Positions 2,533-6,952 of a stretch of DNA of 64,000 bases are shown here, one piece after another; within the stretch, counting starts at the first letter, position 1, and each line of letters starts with the position of its first letter. The stretch is from Acidimicrobiales bacterium (lineage in GTDB: Bacteria > Actinomycetota > Acidimicrobiia > Acidimicrobiales > Iamiaceae), in contig JAUJNP010000007.1 in the NCBI GenBank assembly GCA_030448105.1, positions 1 to 64,000 of the forward strand, given 5' to 3'. A program made the position numbers and the translations under genes. The notes under the pieces are model-generated. The model saw only the letters and a program-made list of their open reading frames with translations. It ran no database searches and had not been told where the DNA came from.

Positions 2533-2636
2533 CCTCACGACCTCGACCGAGACATCGTGCTCGCCACTTCGAGGGCGTGCATCCCTTCGAGCGGGAGAGT
2601 GAGGGCCGGGCTTCGGCGTGCCCCTCGTGCGCCTCG

Positions 2637-2708
2637 AGCGGGTGACGGGAATCGAACCCGCATCACCTGCTTGGAAGGCAGGAGCTCTGGCCATTGAGCT
2701 ACACCCGC
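2637..2708 (-). tRNA. tRNA-Gly (anticodon UCC)
   Basis: Read on the minus strand this folds as a 72-base cloverleaf. It has a 7-bp acceptor stem GCGGGTG/CACCCGC, a D-arm, an anticodon stem CCTGC/GCAGG with loop CTTCCAA giving anticodon TCC, a four-base variable loop, a T-arm with TTCGATT, and discriminator T at 2637. The CCA end is not encoded. It decodes GGA/GGG glycine codons. Confidence 0.95.
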
Positions 2709-2730: not shown

Positions 2731-4338
2731 TCAGTCCTGGGTGACCAGCCCCGTGGCGGGGTCGTAGGTTAAGCGTCCCCGCTCGTAGCGTTGCCGGCGC
2801 AAGGTGCCGTCTGAGTAGGTGTCGGTGACCGGGTAGCCGAGCAGTCCACGGGGCCCGCCCCGGTTGAGGTAGGCGGCGAGGATGGGGCCGTGGACCTCGC
2901 AGGTGCCGACGTTGCTCGAGTAGACGTTGCCCCGCTCGAAGCGGCCGAAGCGTCCACGTTGGTCCCCGACGTCGGCGGTGTCGACGAGGGGGTATCCGAG
3001 GAGGCCGTGCACCCCTCCGAGGGACTCGTGCTTCATGTACACCGAGCCCTCCACTCCTGCGACCCAAGTGCCTGACAGAGCGTAGATCCGGCCCCGCTCG
3101 AAGTTCGAGTAGAACGACCGGTCGGTGCTTCGGGTGTCGCTCGTGGGGTACCCGTATCGGCCGTGGACGCCGCCGAGCCCCTCGTGGCGGGTGAAGATCG
3201 ACCCGTGGATCTCGAAGTTCCCGCGGTCGTAGAGGTAGATCCGTCCGCGCTCGAAGTTGACGTACTGAGACCGGCCCTCGCTGCTGGTCAACGTGTTCGA
3301 GGTCGGATAACCCAGCGCCCCGGTTACACCTCCGTTCGCCTCGTGGCGCAGACATATGGCGCCGTGCACCGCGAACGTGCCTCGCGCCCAGCGGTAGATA
3401 CGGCCAGCTTCGAAGCGGGAGTACCGGGAGCGACCGTCGGGATGCGAGAGCACATCGGACGTCGGGTAGCCGAGCGGGCCCCAGATGCCGCGGTGGAGCT
3501 GGTGGACGTCGAGGATCGAACCGTGCACCTCCCACGCTCCGGTGGCCGGGCGCCAGTAGATGCGGCCGTAGCGGTATATGGCGTAACGGCCGTCGGTTCC
3601 CGTAATCGCCCGCTCGGCCTGGACGACGGGGCCGAGGAACCCCCCCGACCCGCCGAGGCTGGCGTACTTCTTGTCGATCTCCGAGGGGGGCGGGGCGCAG
3701 CCCGGAAGGCAGGGGGCGCCGTGGTTGACCGTGCGGTTGTCGGTGGCGCTGCTCGTGGTGCAGGACGGGTCGTAGCGCCACGGCGGCGTGCACGTCGCCA
3801 CCCGGCACACCACCGGGCCGTAGCAGCGGATCTCCTGGTGGCACTGGCCGTAGCGGAACTGGTTGCAGCAGGTGCGGCGGCCGTCGCAGCTCGCCCCCGA
3901 GCACCGGCAGGAGCACGACGTGGGGCACGACGCGTTGCAGTCGATGATGTAGCGGGCGGCGCCGCAGCAGTAGGCGGCGTTGTCGGCCTTCCACCAGCCG
4001 GCCACGAAGCTGCCGGGCGGGCAGCTGTTGCGGCCACCGTTGATGGTGCAGCAGAACGCGGTCCAGCCGTCCGAACACGTCCCGCACAGGTACCCGTAGG
4101 CGGTGCCGGGCTTGAGGATGAAGTCGAAGGGGTTGACGGCCAGGGCGGAGCCCACCACCGCCGTCTTCACGAGGAAGCTGCGCCGGCTCGGGCGACCACC
4201 GAGCAGTGCCGAGGCGCGGGCCACGAAACGCTCGGACAGCGTGTCGTCGGGGCCGGGGCCGGGCACCGACGGCCGGGGGGCGGTCTGCGAGGCCGTGGCC
4301 GGGACGCTCTGACGGCGAAGGTCGCTGATGGTTCTCAT
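2731..4338 (-). CDS. Tat-exported MauA-like cysteine-rich / LGFP-repeat protein
   Basis: This protein has 535 residues. A twin-arginine signal (RPSRRSFLVKTAVVG, Arg 52-53) sends it across the membrane folded. Residues about 85-193 hold 20 cysteines, with GGRNSCPPG and GWWKAD resembling the light chain of methylamine dehydrogenase (MauA), whose six disulfides and tryptophan tryptophylquinone mature in the periplasm. The position of the second quinone tryptophan (before Cys-Phe in MauA) is Arg171-Cys172 here, so the cofactor probably does not form. Residues about 220-535 are five to six LGFP repeats (LGYPTSD, FERGRIY), which bind cell-wall glycan in actinobacteria. It is last in the mau-like operon; its ATG overlaps the upstream stop by four bases. 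Its reaction is unknown. Confidence 0.8.
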   Translation of the reverse strand: MRTISDLRRQSVPATASQTAPRPSVPGPGPDDTLSERFVARASALLGGRPSRRSFLVKTAVVGSALAVNPFDFILKPGTAYGYLCGTCSDGWTAFCCTINGGRNSCPPGSFVAGWWKADNAAYCCGAARYIIDCNASCPTSCSCRCSGASCDGRRTCCNQFRYGQCHQEIRCYGPVVCRVATCTPPWRYDPSCTTSSATDNRTVNHGAPCLPGCAPPPSEIDKKYASLGGSGGFLGPVVQAERAITGTDGRYAIYRYGRIYWRPATGAWEVHGSILDVHQLHRGIWGPLGYPTSDVLSHPDGRSRYSRFEAGRIYRWARGTFAVHGAICLRHEANGGVTGALGYPTSNTLTSSEGRSQYVNFERGRIYLYDRGNFEIHGSIFTRHEGLGGVHGRYGYPTSDTRSTDRSFYSNFERGRIYALSGTWVAGVEGSVYMKHESLGGVHGLLGYPLVDTADVGDQRGRFGRFERGNVYSSNVGTCEVHGPILAAYLNRGGPRGLLGYPVTDTYSDGTLRRQRYERGRLTYDPATGLVTQD

Positions 4339-4844
4339 CGGGGCGAGATCCTCGTGGCGCGGAGGGTTCGTTGGGCTTGGGGCACCAGAGTGGTGGCCCG
4401 GGCATGGCTGCCGAGCACCACGTAGAGGCAGAAAGCTCGCTCGGCGGTGGTGAAGAACCGCTGGCAGCCGGCCTGGCCCTTGATCACACGTTGCAGGGCA
4501 GAGGGGTTGAACATCGCTGGCTGGAGCGCGGGGATGCCTTGATCGGAGAACAGCGCCTGGCCGACGCTCTCGGGCCCGTACTCGAACAGGGTGAGGAAGA
4601 CGTGGTCGGGGCCCATGACGTCGACCGCGCCGCTCCCGAAGTCGCCCCGCTGTTCAGGCAGGGCGAAGTTGGCCAGGTGCGCCACCGGGCTCGGGACCTC
4701 GCCAGGGGTGCCTCGGGCGCCCGGGCGGTCGTCGGCCCCCGATGGCGACGGGGGCCCGGCGCGCCCCGGGGCTGTCCGCTTGGTGATGCGCCCTTCCCAC
4801 CCGGGGGGCAGGTCGGTGGTGATGCCGTACGCCGAGAGCCTCAT
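4335..4844 (-). CDS. Unknown protein of the mau-like operon
   Basis: This 169-residue protein begins MRLSAYGITTDLPPGWEGRI and has no signal peptide or membrane span. I recognise no family. The N-terminal YGITTDLPPGWEGRI pattern resembles actinobacterial proteins that hold a strand-rich domain after a lipid- or envelope-associated partner. The middle (residues 28-55) is proline/glycine-rich and probably disordered. Two cysteines lie near the C-terminus (about 127 and 139). It overlaps both neighbours by four bases (ATGA at each end), so it is translated in step with the MauA-like LGFP protein and the membrane protein. It likely serves the same process. Confidence 0.7.
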   Translation of the reverse strand: MRLSAYGITTDLPPGWEGRITKRTAPGRAGPPSPSGADDRPGARGTPGEVPSPVAHLANFALPEQRGDFGSGAVDVMGPDHVFLTLFEYGPESVGQALFSDQGIPALQPAMFNPSALQRVIKGQAGCQRFFTTAERAFCLYVVLGSHARATTLVPQAQRTLRATRISPR

Positions 4845-5458
4845 GTTCCGGCCTGCAGCGCGAGGAGTAGGGAAACGGCCACGGCAACAGTTTGCCCTCC
4901 CAGGGCGAGGCGCCGCGCCACCGGCGCCCAGCGCTGGTTGCGGCGGTGCAGGTCCCGCAGGGCGCCGGGGTGGTGCACGGGGGCGGTGAGCAGCACAGGC
5001 AACCCCCGCACGGCGCCGAACACGGCACCCACGACGAGGCCTCCCACCCAGGAGCCGGTGAGGACGGCGGCCGCGAGGGCCACCCACGTGATCGCGCTGC
5101 TGACGATGGTGACCACGGCCAGGCCGAGTTGCAACCCGTACCCGAGGCCGTACACCCAACCCCGGTAGCGGCCGATCCAGTCCTCGTCGACCTGTCGCCG
5201 GATGGTGGGGACGCGCGCGTGGGCCCATCCGAGGTCGGCGACCAGCCCGAGGGCCGCGATCACGCCAAGGGCGAGCAGGCGGGCGCGGGTCGAGGCGGGC
5301 GGTCCCGGGAGCAAGGCGTCGGCGAGCTGGCCGGCCGCCCCGAGCGCCAGGCCCATGGCGGCACCGCCCAGGGCCGAGCCGGCCATGTAGGCGCCGGCGG
5401 TGAGGGCCCAGCGGTTGTTCCGTCCCCGCTCCCCGAGCGGGGTGATGCTCGAGAGCAT
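4841..5458 (-). CDS. Multi-pass membrane protein of the mau-like operon
   Basis: This 205-residue protein begins MLSSITPLGERGRNNRWALTA and has about five hydrophobic helices (near 20-45, 60-80, 105-130, 133-155, 180-203). SITPLGERGR followed by a small-residue helix (AGSALGGAAMGLALG) recalls CcdA/DsbD-type electron-carrier membrane proteins. MauF, a required part of methylamine dehydrogenase maturation, belongs to that group. The cysteine pair of DsbD is not visible here, so electron transfer is doubtful. It sits between the MauD-like gene and the MauA-like partner genes and overlaps the next start by four bases. The MauF analogy is inference from position and topology only. Confidence 0.65.
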   Translation of the reverse strand: MLSSITPLGERGRNNRWALTAGAYMAGSALGGAAMGLALGAAGQLADALLPGPPASTRARLLALGVIAALGLVADLGWAHARVPTIRRQVDEDWIGRYRGWVYGLGYGLQLGLAVVTIVSSAITWVALAAAVLTGSWVGGLVVGAVFGAVRGLPVLLTAPVHHPGALRDLHRRNQRWAPVARRLALGGQTVAVAVSLLLALQAGT

Positions 5459-5467
5459 CGACTCCCC

Positions 5468-5545
5468 TCAGGGCGACCAGCTGCCGCGCACGGCAGCCAG
5501 GACGGCGAGGGGCACTCCCAGCAGGAGCAGGGCCAGGTCGGTCAC
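5468..5545 (-). CDS. Possible 25-residue membrane microprotein
   Basis: GTG 5545 opens VTDLALLLLGVPLAVLAAVRG, a single hydrophobic helix with a short polar tail, ending nine bases before the next gene. Its start overlaps (GTGA) the stop of a 23-codon frame made of Met-Pro repeats. Its position in a tightly coupled operon supports translation. No family is recognised. The same frame is open upstream through a His-Ala repeat but has no start codon there, so a longer frameshifted original is possible. Confidence 0.35.
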   Translation of the reverse strand: MTDLALLLLGVPLAVLAAVRGSWSP

Positions 5546-5613
5546 CGGGCCGGGCCGACCCTCGAGCGAGGCTCGCCGAGCCAGAGCATGGGCATGGGCA
5601 TGGGCATGGGCAT
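5542..5613 (-). CDS. Met-Pro-repeat leader-like mini frame
   Basis: Two bases after the stop of the MauD-like gene, five in-frame ATG codons are created by a CCCATG hexamer array. They are followed by LWLGEPRSRVGPAR and a stop that overlaps the next GTG. It may act as a translational coupler rather than a functional peptide. No direct evidence of function. Confidence 0.25.
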   Translation of the reverse strand: MPMPMPMPMLWLGEPRSRVGPAR

Positions 5614-5615
5614 GG
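5587..5615 (+). repeat. Hexanucleotide array (CATGGG)x4 plus CATGG
   Basis: Four perfect copies of CATGGG and one partial copy stand between two operon genes. On the coding (minus) strand each copy supplies an in-frame ATG. A change of copy number would not alter the frame, so it would tune length or the number of starts rather than switch a gene on or off. Confidence 0.9.
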
Positions 5616-6404
5616 TCACCGTTCGCCCGACTCCGGGTCTGTCAGCTCGTAGAGGCTCGGATCCCCGGGGGGCACGCCCGCGGCCAGCAGCTCCTGGTCG
5701 ATGCGGCGCTCGCGGGTGGCGTCGGCGCCCGGCTTGGACACACGGCGGGCCTCGAGCTCGGCGGCGAACACGTCGTCGTCGGCCACCTGGGACAGCAGGC
5801 CCCGGACCTGCGGCCAGTCGATCCCCGTGCCCTCGCCCCGGGCCTGGCCGCTCGGTCCGTCAACGAGCACGAAATACGGCGAGCCGGGCACGTCGTACGC
5901 GGACCACGCCTCGCTGGACATCACGAGCGGCACGGCGGCCGGCGCCAGCTCGGCGATGCGGGCCGGCAGCTCCTCGGAGGGGTCGCGGGTGACGATCACC
6001 AGCCGAACCCCGGGCGCCAGGCCGAGCTCGGCCGGGTCGGCGAAGGCGTCCCAGAACCGGTGGCAGGTGAGGCAGCTGCTGGAGAGGAACGCCACCAGCG
6101 TGGCGTGCTCGACCCCGACCACCCGGATGGACACGGCGTCGTCGGCCACTCCCACCCCGGCCAGGTCGCGACCGGCCGGCAGCTCCTCACGGTCGCCCGG
6201 GGCAGGTACCTCGGGGAAGACGTTGAACTGGTCCCGGGTCACGCCCCGGGACGCCCGCGAGGAACCCGGCGCGCCGCCCTGCTCGACGCCGGCGCCGAGG
6301 TCGTGGAGCCGGCGGAGGATCTCGGCGTGGCTGCGCAGCAGGCCGACCACCAGCAGCGTGAGCAAGGCCACGGCGGCCGCCAGCACCGCGACCAGCGCGG
6401 TCAT
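5616..6404 (-). CDS. MauD-like thioredoxin-fold redox protein
   Basis: This 262-residue protein has an N-terminal membrane anchor (residues about 3-25, MTALVAVLAAAVALLTLLVVG). The extracytoplasmic thioredoxin fold follows, with the redox motif SSSCLTCHRFW in the usual position after a beta strand (VEHATLVAFL) and a later cis-Pro-like segment (GSPYFVLVDG). MauD proteins share this plan and are needed to form the disulfides of the methylamine dehydrogenase light chain. The 20-cysteine protein of the same operon is the obvious client. I chose ATG 6404 because it overlaps the stop of the MauE-like gene (TGATG) and immediately starts the signal anchor; the frame is open further upstream with arginine-rich sequence. 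Confidence 0.8.
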   Translation of the reverse strand: MTALVAVLAAAVALLTLLVVGLLRSHAEILRRLHDLGAGVEQGGAPGSSRASRGVTRDQFNVFPEVPAPGDREELPAGRDLAGVGVADDAVSIRVVGVEHATLVAFLSSSCLTCHRFWDAFADPAELGLAPGVRLVIVTRDPSEELPARIAELAPAAVPLVMSSEAWSAYDVPGSPYFVLVDGPSGQARGEGTGIDWPQVRGLLSQVADDDVFAAELEARRVSKPGADATRERRIDQELLAAGVPPGDPSLYELTDPESGER

Positions 6405-6952
6405 CAGGCGGCCCGCTCGTCGGGGCCGCCGCCGTCGGCCACCGCGGCGACGAGGTCGGGCAGCGCGGTGAAGGCCACGTAGGCCAACCACGTGCAGAGC
6501 GCGACGAGGAGGGGGAAGGGCACGCCTCCCAACGGCTGGCCGGCCACCACGCCGGGCAGCCCACCGGGGGGGGCGACGGCGGCCAGCGCGGCGGTAGCGG
6601 CCATGGCGAGGTTGAGGGCCGCGTGCAGCGTGGACGCGGGGGTCTCGGACTCACCGAAGCAGCCGCAGCCGGCGGCGCCGCCCTGCCGGGCGATGAGGCG
6701 CATGGTGAAGGCGGCGAAGGCCAGATAGCTCGCCACCACCAGGAGGGCCATGGGCCGGGAGCCGAGCACCAGCGCGGCGGTGGCCACGCTCACCTCGAGC
6801 GCGCCGAGCGCCCGAGCCACGAGCGGCGAGCCGGCCAGGTCGGCCTCGTGAAGGGCGCGGACGGTGCCCGACGGGCGCACCAGCTTGACCAGGCCCGCCA
6901 CCCCGAGCAGGGCGGCGACGGCGAAGAAGGGCCCGGCGACGACGGAGGACAT
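6404..6952 (-). CDS. MauE/DoxX-like membrane protein
   Basis: This 182-residue protein has four to five membrane helices, starting MSSVVAGPFFAVAALLGVAGL. The GAAGCGCFGE motif in the middle loop is the hallmark of the MauE branch of the DoxX-like superfamily. These proteins are thought to pass reducing or oxidising equivalents to MauD-type thioredoxins. It is the first gene of the minus-strand operon and is transcribed divergently from trigger factor. An upstream TTG at 6970 is possible, but ATG 6952 directly precedes the first helix. The cysteine pair and the neighbour with a CxxC motif support a disulfide relay. Confidence 0.8.
   Translation of the reverse strand: MSSVVAGPFFAVAALLGVAGLVKLVRPSGTVRALHEADLAGSPLVARALGALEVSVATAALVLGSRPMALLVVASYLAFAAFTMRLIARQGGAAGCGCFGESETPASTLHAALNLAMAATAALAAVAPPGGLPGVVAGQPLGGVPFPLLVALCTWLAYVAFTALPDLVAAVADGGGPDERAA

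What the first reader, a model, noticed from the sequence alone, without database searches (positions are those of the whole stretch)
2731..6952. Mau-like redox operon that appears to build a wall-bound MauA-like protein
A MauE-like membrane protein (GCGCFG motif), a MauD-like thioredoxin-fold protein (SCLTC), an unknown membrane protein and an unknown soluble protein lead to a Tat-exported protein that joins a 20-cysteine MauA-like domain to LGFP repeats. Overlapping stop/start codons tie most of the genes together. In known mau operons MauE and MauD make the light-chain disulfides, but here there is no large subunit (MauB), no MauG and no amicyanin. It looks like the disulfide-building half of the methylamine system used for a cell-wall protein.
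Basis: partly seen in the sequence, partly recalled or inferred. Interest (0 to 1): 0.78.

Follow-up and report, generated by a model that had tools for sequence, protein, structure and literature searches.

The report
Mau-type folding operon, wall-anchored MauA-like protein
An actinobacterium keeps the three genes that other bacteria use to fold the small subunit of methylamine dehydrogenase, but appears to apply them to a different cysteine-rich protein that has lost the enzyme's cofactor site and carries cell-wall- or sugar-binding tails; this five-gene set recurs across several classes of Actinomycetota, and its key domain matches no Pfam family.

Summary
The operon is real. Five minus-strand genes (window 2731-6952) encode MauE, a MauD-like thioredoxin, a membrane protein that I identify as a MauF homologue (hhalign probability 98.2, E 2.9e-14), a small cytoplasmic protein with a PsbP/Mog1-like predicted fold, and a Tat-exported protein joining a 22-Cys head to six LGFP repeats. 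The set recurs in Acidimicrobiia, Nitriliruptoria and Actinomycetes: all five genes in 50 of 80 fetched loci. In 396 phylum genomes the head and the soluble protein occur in exactly the same 31. The head has no Pfam hit, but its predicted structure ranks MauA/AauA light chains first, and profile comparison with MauA beats all 399 column shuffles. The position aligned with TTQ Trp108 is never Trp in 121 sequences; the Trp57 and Asp76 positions are invariant. No MauB or MauG homologue was found in the genome, so it is not an amine dehydrogenase. Most likely the MauE/MauD/MauF oxidative-folding module has been kept for a TTQ-less MauA-fold surface head, while the tail swaps freely (LGFP, SLH, ricin-B, PLL lectin, others, none). 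What the head does is unknown.

The parts
6404..6952 (-). MauE-family membrane protein (182 aa), G-C-G-C-F-G motif
   Evidence: Pfam MauE E 8e-14, 52.5 bits over cut-off 27; hhalign vs proteobacterial MauE prob 96.5, E 8e-10; both Cys invariant in 97 relatives
5616..6404 (-). MauD-like, membrane-anchored thioredoxin-fold protein (262 aa), S-C-L-T-C
   Evidence: NCBIfam MauD weak, E 0.029, 13.8 bits vs cut-off 188.6; hhalign vs proteobacterial MauD prob 97.6, E 3.5e-12 over 182 columns; both Cys invariant in 96 relatives
4841..5458 (-). MauF-like membrane protein (205 aa), no cysteine
   Evidence: hhalign vs MauF prob 98.2, E 2.9e-14 over 180 columns, control vs MauE prob 0.2; Pfam DsbD_2 E 3e-6; Cys-free, no conserved Cys column in 81 relatives
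4335..4844 (-). small soluble protein (169 aa) without signal peptide, PsbP/Mog1/LpqN-like predicted fold; strict partner of the head domain
   Evidence: model pLDDT 92.8; VIA-align Z 6-7 to Tsi3, PsbP, MTC28, LpqN and Z 4.8 to Mog1; present in exactly the same 31 of 396 genomes as the head domain
2731..4338 (-). Tat-exported MauA-like protein: RR signal, 22-Cys head (aa 78-215), six LGFP repeats
   Evidence: fold and profile link to MauA
3694..4107 (-). Cys-rich MauA-like head domain (protein residues 78-215)
   Evidence: 77 of 298 order genomes; invariant W115, W116, R129, Y130, D133, F161-G164, R179
2749..3636 (-). six LGFP repeats (wall-binding module)
   Evidence: PF08310, six matches over the cut-off, the only LGFP matches in the genome
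5586..5615 (.). perfect 6-base tandem repeat (GCATGG)x5 in the gap between the MauD and MauF genes
   Evidence: function unknown

Best explanation
The operon builds a secreted, disulfide-stapled surface protein with the maturation half of the methylamine dehydrogenase system. Steps: (1) the precursor carries a twin-arginine signal and is exported by Tat (shown: motif in 128/130 relatives, TatC in the genome; inferred: actual export). (2) Outside the membrane, the MauD-like thioredoxin (CxxC) and MauE (CxC), with the Cys-free MauF-like protein as a membrane partner, make the roughly ten disulfides of the head (shown: invariant CxxC/CxC, linkage, cysteines lost in pairs; inferred: the oxidase/isomerase activity). 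(3) The cytoplasmic PsbP/Mog1-fold protein acts on the precursor before export, as a dedicated chaperone or holder (inferred from its lack of a signal, strict co-occurrence and gene linkage). (4) The folded head has a MauA-type fold but cannot form TTQ, because the Trp108 position is not Trp, and there is no heavy chain. (5) LGFP repeats hold it in the cell wall; other species use lectin, SLH or other tails, or none. The conserved head therefore carries the function, probably structural or ligand-binding at the cell surface, and the tail is an exchangeable tether.
For: MauE, MauD and MauF homology by Pfam and hhalign with negative controls. Co-occurrence: five genes in 50/80 loci, 49 of 50 co-directional, order E-D-F-sol-A in 36; head and soluble protein in the identical 31 of 396 genomes, MauF-like at E<=1e-38 in all 31. 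MauA link: all 13 entries with Z>=2, out of 102 chains aligned, are MauA/AauA light chains (Z 2.1-2.6), and Foldseek's top PDB hit is MauA, although E 4.3; hhalign vs MauA plus Thermomicrobium MauA relatives scores 25.8, E 0.0012, 0 of 399 column shuffles reach it (best 25.7), reversed 10.4. Bridge: a Thermomicrobium roseum plasmid has PF02975 proteins, MauE, a MauD-like redoxin and a homologue of the MauF-like protein together. Disulfides: C97-C210, C88-C146 and C142-C157 are lost or kept together on independent branches (5/5, 2/2, 2.9/3), other pairs are not. The Trp108 position is not Trp in any of 121 sequences; Trp57 and Asp76 positions invariant. No MauB or MauG (control 91). Tails: LGFP, SLH, RicinB, PLL lectin (E 1e-80), DUF4214, other repeats, none.
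Against: No sequence hit of the head to PF02975 in any of 41 members or to any PDB chain; structure Z is only about 2.5 with pLDDT 75, so MauA homology is not proven by any one test, and the best shuffled hhalign score (25.7) is close to the real one. The equivalence to Trp57, Trp108 and Asp76 depends on that alignment, and 3 of 121 sequences (Pseudonocardiales) have a Trp in a two-residue insertion at the Trp108 region. The role of MauE/MauD in disulfide formation is itself inferred in Paracoccus. Disulfides, export and wall location were not measured. The soluble partner's chaperone role has no direct support. In some loci the MauF-like gene is not next to the others (it lies elsewhere in the genome in G002 and G095).
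Confidence: 0.7

Rival explanations
1. The head is a redox enzyme or electron carrier with another protein-derived cofactor: the invariant Trp-Trp(-Lys) (W115, W116, K117) is cross-linked to a Cys, Tyr or Lys (CTQ- or LTQ-like) and the protein acts as a wall-bound oxidase or dehydrogenase.
For: W115, W116, R129, Y130, D133, F161-G164 and R179 are invariant in 121 sequences although members share only about half of their residues; the Trp57 and Asp76 positions of the TTQ site are kept; real MauA proteins are cofactor enzymes.
Against: The residue aligned with Trp108 is never Trp; no MauG, no heavy chain and no additional conserved gene next to the five; the 20 core cysteines can all be paired.
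Confidence: 0.08
2. The head is not homologous to MauA; an unrelated Cys-rich exported protein has recruited MauE/MauD/MauF.
For: No PF02975 or PDB sequence match; Foldseek E 4.3, Z about 2.5. A second, differently patterned 10-Cys Tat protein family sits in other MauE/MauD/MauF clusters, so the module does serve divergent clients.
Against: MauA/AauA are the only structures with Z>=2 among 102 chains; hhalign score above all 399 shuffles; same operon partners as MauA, including MauF; MauA-like Tat leader and CPPG..W..C..Y..DC core.
Confidence: 0.15
3. An incomplete or degenerate amine dehydrogenase operon whose heavy chain lies elsewhere in the genome.
For: Thermomicrobium roseum shows MauA-like proteins with propeller-like neighbours that PF06433 does not detect, so a diverged heavy chain could be missed; the genome is 94% complete.
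Against: The Trp108 position is not Trp in 121 sequences from many genera; no MauB, MauG or extra conserved neighbour; the head is strongly conserved.
Confidence: 0.05
4. The head is a ribosomal-peptide-like precursor (signal or antibiotic) whose cysteines are processed by MauE/MauD, as proposed for Streptomyces mauE/mauD clusters with Cys-rich precursors.
For: decRiPPter reports mauE/mauD next to >=8-Cys precursors in Streptomyces (PMC7794033); tail-less heads exist.
Against: Tat signal and not a peptide leader; most members are multi-domain proteins with anchoring modules; no protease, transporter or tailoring enzyme conserved nearby.
Confidence: 0.07

Closest known systems
mau operon (mauFBEDACJGMN) of Paracoccus denitrificans, MauA/MauB methylamine dehydrogenase
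   Same: MauF, MauE and MauD homologues beside a Tat-signalled, Cys-rich MauA-like protein
   Different: No MauB, amicyanin or MauG in the cluster; Trp108 position not Trp; extra PsbP/Mog1-fold protein; wall-binding tail
Aromatic amine dehydrogenase (aauBEDA) light chain AauA
   Same: E-D-A gene order; AauA structures are among the best structural matches
   Different: AauA has both TTQ Trp residues and a heavy chain; no MauF or soluble partner in the plasmid example read
Thermomicrobium roseum plasmid MauA-like cluster (NC_011961)
   Same: MauA-like + MauE + MauD-like redoxin + homologue of the MauF-like protein
   Different: Keeps both TTQ Trp positions in at least one copy and has propeller-like neighbour proteins; no soluble partner, no LGFP
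LGFP-repeat proteins such as Corynebacterium MytA/PS1
   Same: LGFP stalk; MytA LGFP domains bind peptidoglycan-arabinogalactan (Dietrich 2020, as cited in PMC11299179); direct sequence match to 6swz
   Different: Different head; MytA is a mycoloyltransferase
decRiPPter mauE/mauD candidate clusters in Streptomyces (PMC7794033)
   Same: mauE/mauD proposed to act on a Cys-rich partner other than MauA
   Different: Proposed as RiPP precursors; no MauA fold, MauF or wall tail reported in the passages read

Membership tests
TTQ amine dehydrogenase light chain (MauA/AauA, PF02975) | Pfam profile match over cut-off | tested here: not met
   0 of 41 members match PF02975 at E<=10; 0 of 396 phylum genomes over cut-off; control rings in Paracoccus and Thermomicrobium
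TTQ amine dehydrogenase light chain (MauA/AauA, PF02975) | MauA fold | tested here: inconclusive
   MauA ranked first by Foldseek (E 4.3); all 13 entries with Z>=2 are MauA/AauA (Z 2.1-2.6, 63-75 residues, rmsd about 3)
TTQ amine dehydrogenase light chain (MauA/AauA, PF02975) | both TTQ tryptophans (Trp57, Trp108) | tested here: not met
   Trp57 position invariant; Trp108 position not Trp in 121 of 121, with a Trp in a nearby insertion in 3
TTQ amine dehydrogenase light chain (MauA/AauA, PF02975) | Tat-type leader and linked mauE/mauD | tested here: met
   RR motif in 128 of 130; linkage
TTQ amine dehydrogenase light chain (MauA/AauA, PF02975) | MauA disulfide pattern | tested here: inconclusive
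   C88-C146 and, weakly, C138-C172 covary as expected for MauA 23-88 and 78-109; C97-C210 and C142-C157 are extra; the MauA pairs are from memory
Methylamine dehydrogenase operon | heavy chain MauB | tested here: not met
   PF06433 not found in the genome, 94% complete; positive control E 2e-212 in Paracoccus
Methylamine dehydrogenase operon | MauG | tested here: not met
   PF03150 not found; the model rings in 2 control genomes
MauE | Pfam MauE over cut-off and C-x-C | tested here: met
   52.5 vs 27 bits; Cys invariant 97/97
MauD | NCBIfam MauD equivalog cut-off | tested here: not met
   13.8 vs 188.6 bits
MauD | remote homology and C-x-x-C | tested here: met
   hhalign prob 97.6, E 3.5e-12; 96/96
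MauF | profile homology to MauF | tested here: met
   prob 98.2, E 2.9e-14; control vs MauE prob 0.2
LGFP repeat proteins (PF08310) | repeats over cut-off | tested here: met
   E 8e-53, six repeats, the only LGFP protein found in the genome
RiPP precursor | leader cleavage and mature peptide | not testable with these tools
   needs mass spectrometry

The most novel reading that the evidence does not exclude
MauE, MauD and MauF are a general Tat-coupled oxidative-folding machine for Cys-rich exported proteins, and methylamine dehydrogenase is only one client. At least three client families exist: TTQ light chains, this TTQ-less surface head, and a second 10-Cys Tat protein found in MauE/MauD/MauF clusters of other Actinomycetota.
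Probability: 0.45. Interest if true: 0.75.

Novelty: new variant of a known kind. Interest (0 to 1): 0.6.

Why it matters
MauE, MauD and MauF are known from methylamine dehydrogenase, and their biochemical roles are still inferred. Finding them tied to a MauA-like protein without the cofactor pair, without a heavy chain and with swappable wall- or sugar-binding tails separates disulfide folding from cofactor making, and offers a client on which the Mau folding machine can be studied alone. It also exposes a conserved surface-protein family that matches no Pfam entry, in roughly 8% of the sampled Actinomycetota genomes.

Tried and rejected
PDB sequence search with the head profile found nothing. 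Pfam on 41 heads found only chance hits. Plain BLASTP head vs MauA gave E 0.16, and hhalign with the small MauA set alone prob 2; only adding the Thermomicrobium MauA relatives gave E 0.0012. TGA inside the match in five genomes: in four it is the stop codon of tail-less heads; the fifth (L171) lies at a contig end, so no selenocysteine claim. The soluble protein as a heavy-chain remnant: no similarity to MauB or to a Thermomicrobium propeller-like protein. Extra conserved neighbour genes: none beyond the local tig-clpP-clpX context of close relatives. LGFP as a cis heavy chain: rejected, because MytA's LGFP domains form a stalk (PMC11299179) and tails are swapped freely. Promoter and terminator scan uninformative.
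Full report
Observation. The stop/start junctions TGATG, ATGA and ATGA are seen directly in the sequence; only MauD and the membrane gene are separated, by 157 bases with a perfect (GCATGG)x5 repeat. The last protein has an SRRSFL twin-arginine motif, 22 cysteines in residues 78-215 and six LGFP repeats. A tRNA-Gly lies just downstream and the trigger factor gene diverges upstream.

Conservation. The Cys-rich head matches 77 of 298 genomes of the order and 31 of 396 drawn from the phylum. A scan of GTDB genomes confirmed 262 encoding stretches; the best 80 loci include Acidimicrobiia, Nitriliruptoria and Actinomycetes such as Frankiales, Nakamurella, Kineococcus, Phycicoccus and Knoellia. Of the 80, 50 carry all five genes, 49 of these 50 on one strand, 36 in the order MauE-MauD-membrane-soluble-head; many of the rest are truncated contigs. 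The soluble protein occurs in exactly the same 31 phylum genomes as the head, and the membrane protein in all 31 at E 1e-38 or better, plus 35 others at weaker scores. No sixth gene is conserved nearby.

Identity of the accessory proteins. The first gene is a MauE by Pfam. The second fails the NCBIfam MauD cut-off, but a profile comparison with proteobacterial MauD gives probability 97.6. It has no cysteine, so it cannot pass electrons through thiols itself. The CxC of MauE and CxxC of MauD are invariant in about 97 relatives each. The soluble protein has a confident model (pLDDT 92.8) of PsbP/Mog1/LpqN type (Z 5-7); it has no signal peptide, so it is probably cytoplasmic. A chaperone role is inference.

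Is the head MauA? No single test settles it. Pfam and PDB sequence searches fail. The predicted structure (pLDDT 75) gives MauA as Foldseek's first hit but with E 4.3, and in the second aligner the 13 entries at Z 2 or more are all MauA or AauA light chains. A profile comparison with MauA/AauA plus two Thermomicrobium sequences scores 25.8 (E 0.0012, 97 columns); none of 399 column shuffles reaches it, the best being 25.7, and the reversed profile scores 10.4. Thermomicrobium roseum provides a bridge: its plasmid has PF02975 proteins with MauE, a MauD-like redoxin and a homologue of the membrane protein. Taken with the shared MauE/MauD/MauF context, common descent is the likeliest reading (about 0.85).

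What has been lost. In the alignment the residue before the cysteine that aligns with MauA Cys109 corresponds to Trp108. In 121 family sequences it is Ala, Ser, Arg, Gly, Pro, Lys, Thr, Glu, Asp or His, never Trp; three Pseudonocardiales sequences have a Trp in a two-residue insertion at this spot. The positions that align with Trp57 and Asp76 are invariant. No MauB or MauG homologue was found in the genome; the MauB model finds the Paracoccus gene at E 2e-212. A TTQ amine dehydrogenase is therefore excluded as far as sequence can show.

Cysteines. Twelve are invariant or nearly so. Among the variable ones C97-C210, C88-C146 and C142-C157 are gained or lost together on independent branches of the tree (5 of 5, 2 of 2 and 2.9 of 3 pairings), while other combinations are not; C138-C172 is weaker. 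The sign tests have too few pairs for formal significance, but the pattern is what disulfides give.

Tails. Among 131 sequences, 56 have LGFP, 17 GYWLVASDGG repeats, and smaller groups have ricin-B (Pfam E 6e-56), SLH (1e-31), DUF4214 (5e-38), a PLL-type lectin propeller (E 1e-80 to solved lectins), other repeats, or a short tail; nine end right after the head. LGFP domains of MytA bind peptidoglycan-arabinogalactan (PMC11299179, citing Dietrich 2020). In this genome all LGFP repeats found are in this one protein. The conserved part is the head and the tail is an exchangeable tether.

Mechanism. Tat export (TatC present), disulfide formation outside the membrane by MauD and MauE with MauF, then docking by the tail. 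Export, oxidation and docking are inferred from the families. The function of the head is open; structural or ligand-binding is favoured over catalytic because the cofactor pair is missing.

Wider finding. Where the MauF-like protein occurs without this head, six of seven inspected loci have a second Tat-exported, 10-Cys protein directly before the MauF-like gene; in five of them a MauD-like gene precedes it, and the sixth contig ends there. It has no Pfam family. This suggests that MauE/MauD/MauF serve several Cys-rich clients. A prior hint exists for Streptomyces mauE/mauD beside Cys-rich precursors (PMC7794033). In the literature library I found no description of this five-gene set; most subscription papers are not held.

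Noticed in passing
L183, L184, L185, L186, L187, L188: Second family of Tat-exported 10-Cys proteins (about 170-195 aa, GGGWSRCCGGRIRRIYDCCSYS...INGD...GYC..GR.VFCI.YRD) beside MauD- and MauF-like genes in other Actinomycetota; no Pfam family.
   Followed up: partly
L151:717-8131: Thermomicrobium roseum plasmid carries several PF02975 MauA-like proteins interleaved with propeller-like proteins (one fused to MauE) that the MauB profile does not detect: possibly an unrecognised set of TTQ dehydrogenases.
   Followed up: partly
window 5586-5615: Perfect (GCATGG)x5 repeat in the only intergenic gap of the operon; could be a phase-variable tract or chance.
   Followed up: no
window 2636-2708: tRNA-Gly (TCC) directly downstream of the LGFP gene; the operon sits between it and the divergent tig-clpP-clpX genes, a location at least partly shared by close relatives (L074, L079, L080).
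   Followed up: partly
L109, L128, L129: Three Pseudonocardiales heads lack the Cys after the Trp108 position and have an inserted Pro-Trp there (QIPWS); unexplained.
   Followed up: no
L171:4172-4276: TGA in place of the first Cys of the FCC motif at a contig end; probably an assembly error, selenocysteine not tested.
   Followed up: no
L116: Record titled Candidatus Melainabacteria carries the full actinobacterial cluster; likely a binning error.
   Followed up: no
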